From the NCBI RefSeq assembly GCF_017377795.1, contig NZ_JAFRDR010000001.1, forward strand, positions 62,001 through 126,000: DNA of 64,000 bases, in the 5' to 3' direction. Made by a program: the position numbers and the translations under genes. Of this stretch, positions 13,998-18,237 are shown one piece after another; the first letter of the stretch is position 1; each line of letters begins with the position of its first letter. The DNA is from Williamsia soli. GTDB taxonomy: Bacteria; Actinomycetota; Actinomycetes; Mycobacteriales; Mycobacteriaceae. A model generated the notes under the pieces. The model did no database searches, was not told the DNA's origin, and saw nothing but the letters and a program-made list of their open reading frames with translations.

Positions 13998-14213
13998 ATG
14001 AGCGTCGAAAACTACGACACCAACGCAGACGGCTACATCGACACCGTCCTGACCGACACCAACGGTGACGGCTGGGCCGACGTCGAAGAGTACGACACGA
14101 ACTTCGACGGCTGGACCGACACCGTCATGACCGACGTCGACTACGACGGCTGGAGCGACGTCACCGAATACGACACCGACTACGACGGCTACTTCGACAC
14201 CGTCGCCGCCTGA
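13998..14213 (+). CDS. 71-residue protein of five 13-residue calcium-loop-like repeats
   Basis: After six residues the protein consists entirely of five repeats of exactly 13 residues: units start at Asp7, 20, 33, 46 and 59, each of form D-x-[ND]-x-D-G-[YW]-x-D. The last four positions alternate: T-V-x-x in units 1, 3 and 5, V-x-E-Y in units 2 and 4. The acidic loop matches calcium-binding loops of EF-hand, dockerin or thrombospondin type 3 repeats. There is no signal peptide, so it should be cytoplasmic. Start ATG 13998 has AAAGGA upstream. It leads a five-gene plus-strand group. Metal binding is inferred. Confidence 0.85.
   Translation: MSVENYDTNADGYIDTVLTDTNGDGWADVEEYDTNFDGWTDTVMTDVDYDGWSDVTEYDTDYDGYFDTVAA
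14016..14210 (+). repeat. five tandem 39 bp coding repeats
   Basis: The repeats encode the 13-residue units of the small acidic protein. Recurrent words include CGACGGCT and GACACCG. The units diverge at third positions, so they look selected at the protein level rather than freshly duplicated. Confidence 0.8.
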
Positions 14214-14318
14214 GCCATCTCCGCCCCTGACGCCCACTGATCGCCCTGGCGATCGGTGGGCGTTGTGGTGCGTGGGGACCACTTGCCAGATCCTAATTAC
14301 TCATTTAGAGTAAAAGGC

Positions 14319-15245
14319 ATGAACACATGGCAAGCGGCGGAGGCGGTGGATCTGATCACCGCGGCCCGCAGTGCATTTGACGTCTTCGGGCCAGATTCTT
14401 CGACACCGGCAGGCAAGCGCGCCGGCCGACGGCTTCACCGCGCACTGATTGCTGCTGTACATCCAGACCGCGCAGTGGCCGCAGGCCTCGACCGTGCAGT
14501 CGCCGCCCAAGCGACCGCGGACCTGAATCGGCTCTACGACGCATGGGTGACAGTCGGCTCCAACGTTCAAGGCCCACATGTTGTCGGCCCTCGGAACGTC
14601 TTCGCGTTGAGGGAGCGCCTATGGGCCACACCTGCGACTGTCGCTTACGGCACCGAGGATCCGCTGGTACGTGTCGAGATCACGAGGGGCGCCGGGGTCA
14701 GCGCCCAGCCGCTCGGGTTCTTACGCGACGCGCTTGCGGCCCAACGGATGGATGCGTTCGTGCCCGAGGTTCTCGAGTCGGCGATCACCGACGGCCATCA
14801 GTGGATGGCCTACCGGTTACCGGCAGGCATGCGATCCCTGCGTGACGTGCACGCCGCCTACCCCGCAGGCCTCGACGGACGCGACTGGGCCTGGATGGCC
14901 CGCCGCATTCTGATGACTTTGGCTGCGGCCAATCGCACCCACGGTGCTCTGACGCTCGACACGGTGCTGATTCATCCCGACGAACATGGCGTGATGCTGA
15001 CCGGATGGGGGCCGGCGGGTCGTGGCTGCCACCTCGACGGGGCCGCAGTTGCTGACCTGTTCGCGATCATGCTGAATATTAAAGCTGCCCAGCAGGTCTC
15101 GTTCGCGAGGGCGTCCGAGCGGATCTCGCCGTCGAGGCAACTGCACGAATACGACCTGCTCTTGCAACGGCTATACGGAGAACGTCGATTCCGGCGTTTC
15201 ACGCTCGCCGACCAGACCACAGCGACATCCACCGGGATGCGCTGA
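14319..15245 (+). CDS. J-domain protein fused to a pseudokinase
   Basis: A 308-residue protein. Residues 1-77 resemble a J-domain, with the diagnostic HPD at 48-50 inside ALIAAVHPDRA and the helix ADLNRLYDAW. Residues about 100-260 resemble a protein-kinase fold: HGALTLDTVLI aligns with the catalytic loop and MLTGWG with the DFG loop. The catalytic Asp, the metal-binding Asn and the DFG Asp are all replaced, so it should not phosphorylate. It may recruit an Hsp70 or act as a scaffold. ATG 14319 follows the repeat protein by 105 bp and is 19 bp before the vWA gene. The domain calls come from motifs only. Confidence 0.7.
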   Translation: MNTWQAAEAVDLITAARSAFDVFGPDSSTPAGKRAGRRLHRALIAAVHPDRAVAAGLDRAVAAQATADLNRLYDAWVTVGSNVQGPHVVGPRNVFALRERLWATPATVAYGTEDPLVRVEITRGAGVSAQPLGFLRDALAAQRMDAFVPEVLESAITDGHQWMAYRLPAGMRSLRDVHAAYPAGLDGRDWAWMARRILMTLAAANRTHGALTLDTVLIHPDEHGVMLTGWGPAGRGCHLDGAAVADLFAIMLNIKAAQQVSFARASERISPSRQLHEYDLLLQRLYGERRFRRFTLADQTTATSTGMR

Positions 15246-15264
15246 ACGATAAAGGAGTATCACC

Positions 15265-16224
15265 ATGGGTGGAGGATATTGGGACACCAGCGCCTACCAG
15301 GCGGCCGCAGCGTCGCGCCGGACCGCCGGGGTCGACGACTTCGGTTACTCGGCGACCATGCGGAATGTCCCCCGTAACAAGCGCAAAGCCGCGCCGGCCC
15401 TCGACGTGTTCGGAGCCCGAACCCGCGAGGCCCGCGATTCGGACGAGCACCCGAACTCGACCCCGATCGTCGTGCTGTTCGACGTCACCGGATCGATGGG
15501 ACGCGTACCGATCACCGTGCAGCGGCGCCTTGCCGACCTGCTCGGGATGCTCACCAGGGGCGGATATGTCCAAGACCCGCAGATCATGATCGGCGCGATC
15601 GGTGACGACCAATTCGATTCTGTGCCATTGCAAATGGGACAGTTCGAATCCGACAACAGGATCGACGAGCAACTTCGCGACATCTACCTCGAGGGTGGCG
15701 GCGGGGGTGACAAGCGAGAAGGTTACGCGCTTGCCGCGTACTTCCTGAACACCCGTGCACAGACCGATGCCTGGGACAAACGCGGCAAGAAAGGATACGT
15801 CTTCATCATCGGTGATGAGATGAACAAGCAGATCCTGTTCGCGGAGTCGGTGCGCCGCTTCATCGGCGACGATTCCACCGAGAACATCGACGTCGAGCAG
15901 GTGTATCGCAGGCTGCAGGAGAGGTGGAATGTCTACTACGTCTTGCCGAACCTGACCAGCTACTACAACGATCCGGAGGTAGAAGCTCACTGGCAGGCCC
16001 TTGTCGGCGAGCGGTTTCTCAAGCTCGACAACCCGGACGGAGTTGCCGATCTGATCGCATTGACCATCGGCATCGTCGAGGACGCGATCTCACTCGAGGA
16101 GGGATTGGCGGATCTGCAGAGAGCAGGGGCGCCCACGGCCCCGGCCGTCGGCACCGCGCTTGCCCGGATACGCACCGGCACAGCCGTTGTCACCGACGGT
16201 GGCCGACTGCCGGCGGATCTGTGA
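15265..16224 (+). CDS. vWA-domain protein
   Basis: A 319-residue protein with a von Willebrand factor A fold, normally a metal-dependent protein-binding module. The MIDAS start DVTGSM is at 73-78 after VVLF. Further elements are a loop with GAIGDDQFDS, a glycine-rich EGGGGGDKREGY segment and VFIIGDEMN. AAGGAG precedes ATG 15265. The stop overlaps the start of the PurA paralogue (ATGA), so the two are translationally coupled. vWA proteins often work with J-domain, kinase or AAA partners in assembly or conflict systems. No partner ATPase is present here. Confidence 0.85.
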   Translation: MGGGYWDTSAYQAAAASRRTAGVDDFGYSATMRNVPRNKRKAAPALDVFGARTREARDSDEHPNSTPIVVLFDVTGSMGRVPITVQRRLADLLGMLTRGGYVQDPQIMIGAIGDDQFDSVPLQMGQFESDNRIDEQLRDIYLEGGGGGDKREGYALAAYFLNTRAQTDAWDKRGKKGYVFIIGDEMNKQILFAESVRRFIGDDSTENIDVEQVYRRLQERWNVYYVLPNLTSYYNDPEVEAHWQALVGERFLKLDNPDGVADLIALTIGIVEDAISLEEGLADLQRAGAPTAPAVGTALARIRTGTAVVTDGGRLPADL

Positions 16225-17612
16225 TGGACGCAGCAGCGGACGCTCCCGCCGGGGAAGGTCTTCTTCCCGGGCGGGCCGCCGGCGCACCGATCATCGTCGT
16301 CGGACTCGGTTACGGCGATGAGGCCAAGGGGGCAACGGTGGACTACCTGGCGTCGCAGATCCCTGACACCGCCGCGGTGGTGCGCTGGTCCGGTGGAGCC
16401 CAGGCCGCACACAATGTGTGGCACGGCCCGCGCCACCACACATTCCGGCAGTTCGGCTCGGCGTCGCTGCTGGACGTCCGGACGATCCTACGGGCCCCGA
16501 TGATGGTGAACCCGCTCAACCTTGCTATCGAGGCGAGCGAACTCGAAGCGCTCGGAATTGTTGACTCACTCGGTTTGATCACGGCCGACGCCCGCGCCTT
16601 GGTGACCACGCCCATACATGTCGCGATGAATCGAGCACGAGAGATCCTGCGTGGCAACGCACGTCACGGATCGACAGGGGAAGGTATCGGTGAGACCACG
16701 GCGTACGCGCTCGCAGTGGCAGGGCGGGCTCGTGCCGGTTCGATGATCGGCAACTTCGAGGTTCTTGTCGATGCTCCCGGGGGACCGGCACCGACGCTGG
16801 CCACCCTGCGAGACCGCGCTGGCACCATCCGGGCACTCGACGCACTGGCCGAGTATGCGGCGCCGCTGTTGGCTTCCGCCGGTGAGGGTGCACCGCACGA
16901 GTCGATCGAGACCATCGCCGACGCACTGTGCAGCATCGCCGACCAGATCCGCATCATCGACGACGTCGACACCGAGATCGCGGCCGCGATGGCAACGGGA
17001 ACCGTACTTTTCGAAGGAAGCCAGGGCGTCCTGCTGGACGAATGGAATGGGTTCCATCCGTTCACGACCTGGTCGACGGTCGTACCCGCCGATCTCATCG
17101 AATGGATCTCGCGGACCGGTCACAATCCCTACGTGTTGGGGTTGACCCGCTGCTACGCCACCCGTCACGGCGCAGGGCCGATGCCGACCGAGGATGCGAA
17201 CCTCCAGTTGCCCGACGTCCACAATCGCGAGGGGCGCTACCAGGGAGCCTGGCGAATCGGTCATCTCGACCTTCCTGCCCTGCGCTACGCCGCTGCGATC
17301 ACCGGCCAGATCGACGGTGTGGCGGTCTCACACCTCGATGTGCTGGGGACCGCTGACCTGCAGGTGGCCGATGCCTGGCGCGGTGATCCGCAACCGCTGA
17401 CGCCGTTGCATACAGCAGACACTGCAGTGCTTGAAGAGCTGACCGCACTCGCCTCCGAGGCCCGGCCCGACTACCGTCCACTACCGGTGGGTGTCGACGC
17501 TGTCACCGACCTGATCGCGGGAGCAACGGGGGCTCCTGTGGTCGTCACCGCCGCAGGTCCACGTCGTACCGACAGGAGCTTCATTGTCCAACGCCCCTCT
17601 CTCAGGGCCTGA
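16224..17612 (+). CDS. adenylosuccinate synthetase (PurA) paralogue
   Basis: A 462-residue PurA-family protein. Canonical PurA joins IMP and aspartate using GTP. Here GLGYGDEAKGATVDYLA matches the P-loop GDEGKG region and keeps the catalytic Asp. SGGAQAAHN keeps the catalytic His but alters the usual NNAGH. GSTGEGIGE replaces GTTGRGIGP, losing an Arg. EGSQGVLLDEWNGFHPF, TRCYATRHGAGPMPTE and the C-terminal GPRR are family-like. TKLD is changed to SHLD. The nucleotide or amino substrate may therefore differ from IMP/Asp. Its place among J-domain, vWA and NrtR-like genes argues against housekeeping purine synthesis. Confidence 0.85.
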   Translation: MDAAADAPAGEGLLPGRAAGAPIIVVGLGYGDEAKGATVDYLASQIPDTAAVVRWSGGAQAAHNVWHGPRHHTFRQFGSASLLDVRTILRAPMMVNPLNLAIEASELEALGIVDSLGLITADARALVTTPIHVAMNRAREILRGNARHGSTGEGIGETTAYALAVAGRARAGSMIGNFEVLVDAPGGPAPTLATLRDRAGTIRALDALAEYAAPLLASAGEGAPHESIETIADALCSIADQIRIIDDVDTEIAAAMATGTVLFEGSQGVLLDEWNGFHPFTTWSTVVPADLIEWISRTGHNPYVLGLTRCYATRHGAGPMPTEDANLQLPDVHNREGRYQGAWRIGHLDLPALRYAAAITGQIDGVAVSHLDVLGTADLQVADAWRGDPQPLTPLHTADTAVLEELTALASEARPDYRPLPVGVDAVTDLIAGATGAPVVVTAAGPRRTDRSFIVQRPSLRA

Positions 17613-18237
17613 TAGCAGCTACCTGAGCATCGTCTGCGTCGACGTGGTCGCACTCACCTACGACCGCAGCGCTCGGCGGGTGCTGATCGGGACACATCGT
17701 CGGGAGATCGCTCCCTTCCGCGGCAGGCAGGCGCTCCCCGGAGTCGTGGTGCACAGCGGTGAACGACTTCGAGACGCCGCAGGCCGGGCGCTGATCAAAC
17801 TCGGGATCACCGCGCCGCCGCCTGCGCTCGGACAGCTGCGTACGTTCGACGAGCCGTCCCGTGACCCGCGGGGTCCGTCGCTCTCGATCGCGATGTGGGC
17901 GGCGTTGCCCGATCACACTGTGTTGCCGCAGCAGCCGGCGTTGTGGGCGCCGATCGACGCGGCACCCGCGTTGGTGTTCGACCACAACGAGATGGTCAGC
18001 GACGCGCGCGCAATTCTTGCGGAAAAGCTCTGGCGCGATATCGAATTCACCCGCAATCTCACCGGAGTCGAGTTCACCGCAACCGATGCGGTCGCGATCA
18101 CCGAACAACTCAGCGGAAAACCACCGCATCGCGCAAATCTCAACCGGGATCTCGCACACCTGGTCGACCTGGTGGAAGCGGGCACCGCACCCGGGACCGG
18201 TGGAAGGCCGCCGAAGCTGTGGAGGTGGGAGGCCTGA
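17584..18237 (+). CDS. NrtR-like Nudix-fold/winged-helix protein with degenerate Nudix box
   Basis: A 217-residue protein. The N-terminal Nudix fold spans about residues 12-135. Its Nudix box (PGVVVHSGERLRDAAGRALI) lacks the catalytic REXXEE glutamates, so hydrolysis is unlikely. The C-terminal winged helix (about 145-217) ends with GTGGRPPKLWRWEA, matching the NrtR signature G-RP-x-L-x-R. NrtR proteins sense ADP-ribose-type nucleotides and regulate NAD genes. The start is TTG at 17584, with GGAG six bases upstream, overlapping the PurA paralogue by 29 bases. It is the likely nucleotide-responsive regulator or sensor of this gene group. Confidence 0.8.
   Translation: MSNAPLSGPDSSYLSIVCVDVVALTYDRSARRVLIGTHRREIAPFRGRQALPGVVVHSGERLRDAAGRALIKLGITAPPPALGQLRTFDEPSRDPRGPSLSIAMWAALPDHTVLPQQPALWAPIDAAPALVFDHNEMVSDARAILAEKLWRDIEFTRNLTGVEFTATDAVAITEQLSGKPPHRANLNRDLAHLVDLVEAGTAPGTGGRPPKLWRWEA

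What the first reader, a model, noticed from the sequence alone, without database searches (positions are those of the whole stretch)
13998..18237. Candidate uncharacterised five-gene module: Ca-repeat protein, J-pseudokinase, vWA, PurA paralogue, NrtR-like Nudix
Five plus-strand genes follow one another, with the last three overlapping or coupled. Seen: exact 13-residue repeats, HPD and dead kinase motifs, MIDAS DVTGS, a PurA fold with altered substrate motifs, and a Nudix/winged helix with a lost catalytic box. From known families: J-domains and vWA proteins assemble complexes, PurA makes adenylosuccinate, NrtR senses ADP-ribose-like nucleotides. Inference: the PurA paralogue makes or consumes a modified nucleotide, the NrtR-like protein senses it, and the vWA/J-pseudokinase/calcium-loop proteins form the responding complex. 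Stress response or phage defence both fit.
Basis: partly seen in the sequence, partly recalled or inferred. Interest (0 to 1): 0.85.

Follow-up and report, generated by a model that had tools for sequence, protein, structure and literature searches.

The report
Phage-shared PurA-like/vWA operon with repressor
A four-gene bacterial operon, whose core recurs in many large phages, pairs an altered purine-making enzyme with a metal-site protein and appears to be switched by its own nucleotide-sensing repressor; what it makes is unknown.

Summary
The repeat protein is not part of it: a hairpin and promoter separate it, and paralogues occur in all 9 genomes of the genus. vWA and PurA-like genes lie together in 80 of 80 bacterial and 77 of 80 viral loci examined, and co-occur in the same 12 of 101 related genomes. 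Each also matches 190 mycobacterial phage records. The housekeeping PurA lies elsewhere. The PurA-like family keeps catalytic D13, K16, H41 and Q224 (162 of 162) but changes the presumed aspartate and ribose-phosphate sites (R303 gap, V273H: 162 of 162). A conserved 21-bp palindrome overlaps the promoter -10; its half-site differs between two gene-order groups whose Nudix boxes also differ. Best reading: a locally repressed nucleotide-chemistry module, probably activating a 6-oxopurine for a nucleophile other than aspartate, with the vWA protein as near-obligate partner. Substrate, ligand and role are unknown; repression is inferred. Phage defence is not supported. No paper on the system turned up in ten searches.

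The parts
14228..14265 (+). 17-bp stem hairpin (terminator-like, no T tract) between the repeat gene and the operon
   Evidence: strand folding of 14224-14275: -33.6 kcal/mol, z -5.1; not reported by the T-tract terminator scan
14283..14311 (+). Predicted promoter TTGCCA-17-TAGAGT; -10 ends 7 nt before the ATG, so the transcript is probably leaderless (inferred)
   Evidence: promoter scan, 2 sites found against 0.7 expected; a TANNNT at the same spacing in the 29 kinase-first loci printed, most with a TTG-type -35 by eye
14295..14315 (+). 21-bp palindromic presumed operator AATTACTC-N5-GAGTAAAA overlapping the -10 (two mismatches to the symmetrical consensus)
   Evidence: only perfect-core site in the genome
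14319..15245 (+). J-domain pseudokinase; HPD at residues 48-50 (14460-14468)
   Evidence: phrog_3043 kinase E 5e-11
15265..16224 (+). vWA protein with MIDAS DVTGS (residues 73-77) and conserved N-terminus MGxGxW; core gene
   Evidence: (phrog_2971 E 6.6e-68)
16224..17612 (+). PurA-like enzyme: D13/K16/H41/Q224 kept, gap at R303, V273H, T301Q, N38Q (E. coli numbering); core gene; likely start in TGATG overlap with the vWA stop
17584..18237 (+). NrtR-like Nudix plus winged-helix regulator, catalytic REUxEE lost (start codon uncertain, TTG 17584 or later)

Best explanation
A four-gene operon (J-pseudokinase, vWA, PurA-like, Nudix regulator) held off by its own NrtR-like Nudix protein, which sits on a 21-bp operator covering the -10 of a probably leaderless promoter and should release when it binds a nucleotide-type ligand. 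Once expressed, the PurA-like enzyme uses an NTP to phosphorylate, and so activate, the 6-oxo group of a purine compound, as PurA does to IMP. It then lets a nucleophile other than free aspartate attack, giving an unusual 6-substituted purine. The vWA protein is its near-obligate partner, presumably positioning the acceptor or complex through its metal site. The J-pseudokinase recruits host Hsp70 to assemble or remodel that complex. Phages mostly carry the core without the regulator, as an always-available kit. Shown here: gene set, co-occurrence, residue changes, conserved palindrome. Inferred: repression, reaction, ligand, complex formation, Hsp70 recruitment.
For: PurA-like found near the vWA gene in 80/80 genome loci and 77/80 IMG/VR loci; Nudix in 78/80 and 2/80; kinase in 59/80 and 53/80 (profile E 1e-4). 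Both core genes in the same 12 of 101 related genomes. No other ORF family shared by more than 15 of 170 loci. 46 PurA-like and 26 canonical PurA rows fall on two sides of one branch (SH-aLRT 99). In 162 rows (of 165; 3 short or ambiguous ones dropped) D13, K16, H41 and Q224 are invariant, R303 is a gap and V273 is His in 162, T301 is Gln in 161, N38 is Gln in 159; canonical PurA keeps the usual residue in 26/26 at each. Palindrome: 29/31 kinase-first and 18/21 vWA-first loci reach a motif score that 0.16% and 0% of shuffled sequences reach; Nudix-first loci reach it in 1/31 but have TCTC-N5-GAGA in 21/31 against a shuffled mean of 0.04. In this genome one perfect core site, before the operon, and one single-mismatch site elsewhere; one site each in three congeners. 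HPD conserved.
Against: No activity, ligand, binding or transcript was measured. The roles of R303, R305, T301, T129, R143 and V273 in PurA are recalled; my search for a paper on them gave nothing usable. One Arg (position 306: Arg 159, Lys 3 of 162) is kept near the loop, so a changed aspartate site is possible. The kinase is absent from 21/80 genome loci even in a lax search, so it is not essential. Three of 80 viral loci (L119, L126, L150) lack PurA-like. Among eight more distant carriers, the pattern with up to one mismatch lies before the module only in G022 and G073; in five (G071, G074, G086, G093, G095) it hit only other places, and in G084 none, though a diverged left arm as seen in Amycolatopsis would escape the pattern. 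Two of 31 kinase-first, 3 of 21 vWA-first and 10 of 31 Nudix-first loci lack the motif of their group. The loci are the best 80 of 358 and 80 of 285, so biased towards near relatives.
Confidence: 0.5

Rival explanations
1. The PurA-like protein no longer makes a product; it is a nucleotide-responsive switch or scaffold (P-loop NTPase) for the vWA/J-pseudokinase complex, and the Nudix regulator reads the nucleotide pool directly.
For: Substrate-side positions T301, R303, R305, R143 and T129 are changed across the family; the partner proteins are assembly-type domains, one of them a pseudoenzyme.
Against: The residues of the phosphoryl-transfer step (D13, H41, K16, Q224) are invariant in 162/162 rows from phages and bacteria, which a mere binder would not need.
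Confidence: 0.17
2. Phage defence or another biological-conflict system.
For: Patchy distribution (4 of 9 genomes of the genus, own included; 12 of 101 relatives); plasmid copies; at least 3 (supported branches) and by fewest changes 6 switches between viral and bacterial rows; resembles in logic the Nudix-TF/vWA neighbourhoods in PMC9503650 (passages read).
Against: No PADLOC hit for any of the five proteins; no conserved partner in the flanks (flanks not scanned with PADLOC); the same core is in 190 mycobacterial phage records, Rhizobium and Vibrio phages and IMG/VR contigs; no recognisable effector in the operon.
Confidence: 0.13
3. A PurZ-like pathway that makes a modified DNA precursor.
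For: PurA homologue in phages; phrog_1211, which it matches, is annotated '2-aminooxy adenylosuccinate synthetase'; a weak PurZ model hit (30.5 bits against a cut-off of 300).
Against: D13 kept in 162/162, whereas phage PurZ has Asp replaced by Ser (PMC12884076, section 24 read); bacterial chromosomal copies with a regulator; no polymerase or dNTPase family recurs in the loci (up to about 6 kb each side).
Confidence: 0.1
4. An ordinary spare adenylosuccinate synthetase with neighbours of no mechanistic relevance.
For: PF00709 match at 200.7 bits; annotated so in several public records.
Against: The aspartate-loop positions are changed in every member examined and the clade is separate; near-perfect linkage to the vWA gene across phages, actinobacteria, alphaproteobacterial plasmids and an Anaerolineae MAG.
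Confidence: 0.06

Closest known systems
PurA, adenylosuccinate synthetase (PF00709)
   Same: Fold, P-loop region, D13/K16/H41/Q224 kept in 162/162, T239 in 160 and guanine-reading D333 in 160 of 162
   Different: N38Q, T129C/V, R143 not conserved, V273H, T300-T301 to aromatic-Gln, gap at R303, R305 to aromatic/aliphatic, K331H/C; separate clade; far under the equivalog cut-off (144 against 402 bits)
PurZ, 2-amino-adenylosuccinate synthetase of Z-DNA phages
   Same: A PurA paralogue carried by phages
   Different: Catalytic Asp kept, not Ser; different gene company; only weak PurZ model score
NrtR, ADP-ribose-responsive Nudix repressor
   Same: Nudix plus winged helix, 21-bp palindrome over the promoter (the length of known NrtR operators is recalled)
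   Different: As far as the pattern searches show, serves only its own operon; catalytic box lost in the window's group (0 of 50 keep it) but kept by strict pattern in 18 of 31 Nudix-first genome loci
ARG-domain systems with Nudix or WYL transcription factor and vWA chaperone (Iyer et al. 2022, PMC9503650; passages read)
   Same: Logic of nucleotide enzyme, Nudix sensor/regulator and vWA protein in one neighbourhood
   Different: PurA-like enzyme here; no ARG or phosphatase partner seen; core also in phages
MoxR/AAA+-vWA chaperone pairs (PMC7824862, passages read) and TerY-P vWA/kinase/phosphatase triads (recalled)
   Same: A vWA protein working with a P-loop enzyme or kinase-like partner
   Different: Partner is PurA-like, not AAA+; kinase is a J-domain pseudokinase; no phosphatase recurs

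Membership tests
PurA (adenylosuccinate synthetase) | PF00709 fold above gathering score | tested here: met
   200.7-200.8 bits against 27
PurA (adenylosuccinate synthetase) | Aspartate loop T300 T301 x R303 x R305 (its role is recalled) | tested here: not met
   26/26 canonical keep T300, T301, R303 and R305; of 46 PurA-like rows (45 of 70 thinned rows plus the window) none keeps T301 or R303, and R305 is F, W, L or M in 43, the other 3 not listed
PurA (adenylosuccinate synthetase) | Equivalog cut-off (NF002223 / TIGR00184) | tested here: not met
   144 against 402 and 123.7 against 395.55 bits
PurA (adenylosuccinate synthetase) | IMP + aspartate + GTP to adenylosuccinate | not testable with these tools
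   needs an enzyme assay
PurZ | Catalytic Asp13 replaced by Ser | tested here: not met
   Asp in 162/162; rule from PMC12884076 section 24
NrtR-type Nudix regulator | Nudix domain plus NrtR winged helix | tested here: inconclusive
   NrtR_WHD 16.8 bits against cut-off 27; NtrR model 36.8 against 400
NrtR-type Nudix regulator | Palindromic operator at the regulated promoter | tested here: inconclusive
   conserved palindrome present; binding not tested
NrtR-type Nudix regulator | Controls NAD metabolism genes | tested here: inconclusive
   one perfect site in the genome, before this operon, plus one single-mismatch hit on another contig whose neighbourhood was not examined
J-domain protein | HPD between helices II and III | tested here: met
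   H 70, P 66, D 67 of 71; predicted helices 30-47 and 59-82 flank it, with a short helix 49-54; PF00226 in 33/71, not in the window protein
Active protein kinase | Catalytic Asp of HRD | tested here: not met
   aligned position is A 52, G 10, D 2 of 71; Ala in the window protein
vWA domain | MIDAS DxSxS/T and Rossmann-like fold | tested here: met
   D73 and G76 invariant, T75 and S77 at 90% or more of 75 rows; fold
Known anti-phage defence systems | Match to a PADLOC-DB 2.0.0 model | tested here: not met
   0 hits at E up to 1 for five proteins

The most novel reading that the evidence does not exclude
The nucleophile that replaces aspartate is the exposed N-terminal glycine of the vWA partner. 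Gly is the second residue in 165 of 168 vWA loci, phage and bacterial, and MGxGxW is conserved in a stretch that the model leaves without secondary structure. After Met removal the free glycine amine would attack the 6-phosphoryl purine bound by the PurA-like enzyme and fix a nucleotide on the protein through a C6-N bond, a protein modification not known to me. The Nudix regulator would then sense the released or precursor nucleotide.
Probability: 0.06. Interest if true: 0.95.

Novelty: categorically new. Interest (0 to 1): 0.72.

Why it matters
A branch of the PurA family distinct from canonical PurA, and without PurZ's defining change, appears to be under strong constraint in both phages and bacteria. 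It is tied to a vWA family that no Pfam vWA model recognises, and in bacteria usually to a dedicated regulator. If it makes a new purine derivative, it would add a nucleotide-chemistry pathway shared by large phages and bacteria, and would change the meaning of a gene now labelled adenylosuccinate synthetase in many mycobacteriophage records. The palindrome, residue fingerprint and gene set make direct biochemical tests possible.

Tried and rejected
Repeat protein as member: rejected. Related copies occur in 9 of 9 genomes of the genus (own included), 5 of them without the module, although one copy sits upstream of the operon in all four carriers. Related repeats on Gordonia, Rhodococcus and Prescottella plasmids number 99 places in 32 records.

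Defence-island context: no PADLOC hit for the five proteins; flanking genes were not scanned with PADLOC. ORF clustering of the flanks found no shared partner; the largest cluster, an ABC-type ATPase ORF, is in 15 of 170 loci.

Regulon search for a telling second target: nothing convincing. One single-mismatch site on another contig was not followed up. In five more distant carriers the hits lie away from the module; three of them share one single-mismatch site about 41-54 kb from the module, not followed up.

Empty-site comparison: at E 1e-50 the upstream GTPase was not found in 4 of 9 genomes of the genus and the downstream PLD-type gene was found in 9 of 9; no clean empty site was shown.

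Paper searches without a description of the system. The library lacks most subscription journals. Pinkcreek (PMC9476963; one passage read) only lists the genes.

PurZ row: the two alignments place its loop differently and its branch is very long, so no claim is made about PurZ residues there or its place in the tree.

Met-Gly count: the 75 of 75 comes from rows I had picked, which left out several loci with odd called starts; I therefore rely on 165 of 168.
Full report
What is there. The window lies in a 6.07-Mb genome whose nearest named relatives of the module are actinobacteria. Four plus-strand genes form an operon: a J-domain pseudokinase (14319-15245), a vWA protein (15265-16224), a PurA paralogue (16224-17612, likely start in TGATG overlap with the preceding stop) and an NrtR-like Nudix regulator (17584-18237). 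The 71-residue repeat protein at 13998-14213 is real, but its repeats are approximate. It is set apart by a 17-bp-stem hairpin (z -5.1) and by the operon's own predicted promoter. Related copies occur in 9 of 9 genomes of the genus, including the five without the module. In the four carriers one copy does sit directly upstream and is nearly identical (98.6-100%), more so than the operon genes (74-95%). I have no explanation for that.

More than chance. A scan with a vWA alignment gave 358 relatives in genome contigs and 285 in viral contigs; the best 80 of each were kept. With profile searches at E 1e-4, PurA-like was found in 80 of 80 genome loci and 77 of 80 viral loci. Nudix was in 78 of 80 (77 on the same strand) and 2 of 80, and the kinase in 59 of 80 and 53 of 80. 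The three viral loci without PurA-like are L119, L126 and L150. In 101 related genomes, own included, PurA-like (E 1e-60) and vWA (E 1e-20) were found in the same 12, with no genome holding only one. A sample of 296 genomes across the phylum gave 2 carriers, both already among those 12. Clustering of all other ORFs in the loci found no recurrent partner. Public records show kinase-vWA-PurA on Tsukamurella, Rhodococcus, Agrobacterium and Acetobacter plasmids, the same with one extra gene before PurA in mycobacteriophage I3, and vWA-PurA in a Vibrio and a Rhizobium phage. In the phage collection 208 records hold the vWA and 225 a PurA homologue; in each set 190 are mycobacterial phages; I looked at two of these, I3 and Sauce, both Bixzunavirus. 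A 99-row thinned vWA tree needs at least 3 (supported) and by fewest changes 6 switches between viral and bacterial labels. IMG/VR labels were taken at face value.

The parts. The vWA family has no Pfam vWA hit in 75 members but a confident model (pLDDT 92.3) that matches integrin I-domains and vWF A1, with an intact MIDAS motif. Its N-terminus is strikingly fixed: G2 in 165 of 168 loci, and W, F or Y at position 6 in 75 of 75 aligned rows. Control families differ: second residues of the kinase rows are mixed. The J-pseudokinase keeps HPD and has lost the catalytic Asp; DnaJ and Pkinase models hit 33 and 23 of 71 members, though not the window protein. Three PHROG profiles, for kinase, an unnamed family (the vWA protein) and a PurA-type enzyme, match.

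The PurA paralogue. The genome has a canonical PurA (591.6 bits), so this one (200.7 bits) is additional. 46 PurA-like rows (45 of 70 thinned rows plus the window) and 26 canonical rows separate on one branch (SH-aLRT 99, quick tree; the single PurZ row is a very long branch and its place is unsure). In 162 PurA-like rows (of 165; 3 short or ambiguous ones dropped) D13, K16, H41 and Q224 are invariant; V273 is His in 162, the R303 column is a gap in 162, T301 is Gln in 161, N38 is Gln in 159, R143 is not conserved, K331 is His or Cys in 157, D333 is kept in 160. The 26 canonical rows keep the usual residue at all of these. The exact place of a gap is the aligner's choice, but both alignments put it there. 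From recalled PurA structure work, D13 and H41 run the phosphoryl transfer to O6 of IMP, T301/R303/R305 bind aspartate, and N38/T129/R143 bind the 5'-phosphate. So the activating chemistry looks intact while both the nucleophile site and the sugar-phosphate site are rebuilt. That is an inference from sequence.

Regulation. Upstream of the module I found a 21-bp palindrome, TTTNAGTC-N5-GACTNAAA or, in the window's group, TTACTC-N5-GAGTAA. In kinase-first bacterial loci 29 of 31 reach a motif score that 0.16% of shuffles reach; in vWA-first loci 18 of 21 against 0%; in Nudix-first loci 1 of 31; in viral loci 1 of 80. The groups follow the order of called ORF starts, and a few loci may be misplaced by over-long ORFs. 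In the 29 kinase-first loci the site ends two or three bases before the start codon (the script's distance is one base too large because it counts the A of the ATG) and overlaps a TANNNT -10; by eye most have a TTG-type -35. The Nudix-first loci carry another half-site, TCTC-N5-GAGA, in 21 of 31 (shuffled mean 0.04). Their Nudix box is intact by strict pattern in 18 of 31 genome loci, whereas 0 of 50 of the Nudix-last type, window included, keep it. Half-site and Nudix type thus change together, which points to the Nudix protein as the binder. In the window's genome and three congeners the only perfect core is before the operon; this genome has one further single-mismatch hit. Against this, in eight more distant carriers the one-mismatch pattern search found the site before the module in only two.

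Interpretation. Best reading (0.5): a locally repressed nucleotide-chemistry operon in which the PurA-like enzyme activates a 6-oxopurine and joins it to a nucleophile other than aspartate, with the vWA protein as near-obligate partner and the J-pseudokinase as an Hsp70 adaptor. Phages mostly carry the core without the regulator. Rivals: a switch without product (0.17), defence (0.13), a PurZ-like DNA precursor pathway (0.10), a spare PurA (0.06). The boldest reading not excluded is that the N-terminal glycine of the vWA protein is the nucleophile (0.06).

Comparison with the known. It fails tested defining features of PurA (aspartate loop, equivalog cut-offs) and PurZ (Asp13 to Ser; rule from PMC12884076, section 24). 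NrtR membership is inconclusive: the profile scores are under the cut-offs, and the conserved palindrome has not been shown to be bound. The nearest published logic I saw is the Nudix/WYL-TF plus vWA neighbourhoods with ARG domains in PMC9503650 (passages; no occurrence of 'adenylosuccinate' in its text). No paper on this system turned up in ten searches of a library without most subscription journals. 'Categorically new' refers to the system; every component belongs to a known superfamily.

Noticed in passing
13998-14213 and G000:C25:14102-14305, G000:C11:43415-43621: The 13-residue D-x-N/D-x-D-G repeat protein is a multi-copy family in all 9 genomes of the genus; the copy upstream of the module is 98.6-100% identical among carriers although neighbouring genes are 74-97% identical.
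   Followed up: partly
L200:3501-5288 (Mycobacterium phage Sauce gene 259): In some mycobacteriophages the vWA gene is about 595 codons and annotated HNH endonuclease, which suggests an intein or homing insertion inside the conserved vWA gene; not read through.
   Followed up: no
L173:3709-4787 (G002): The RsgA-like GTPase gene upstream of the module matches in two overlapping pieces in different frames in this congener, so it may be frameshifted there.
   Followed up: no
L009:788-3124 (Rhizobium phage RHph_TM3_3_6): Upstream of the vWA-PurA pair lie a dehalogenase-like hydrolase, a phosphoribosyltransferase-like gene and an NMN-adenylyltransferase/Nudix-type gene, possible nucleotide partners in this phage.
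   Followed up: no
G000:C18:192202-192218; G074:C1:4273887, G086:C3:245332, G095:C41:314261: Single-mismatch copies of the palindrome away from the module; the last three are the same sequence about 41-54 kb from the module in three genomes of one genus.
   Followed up: no
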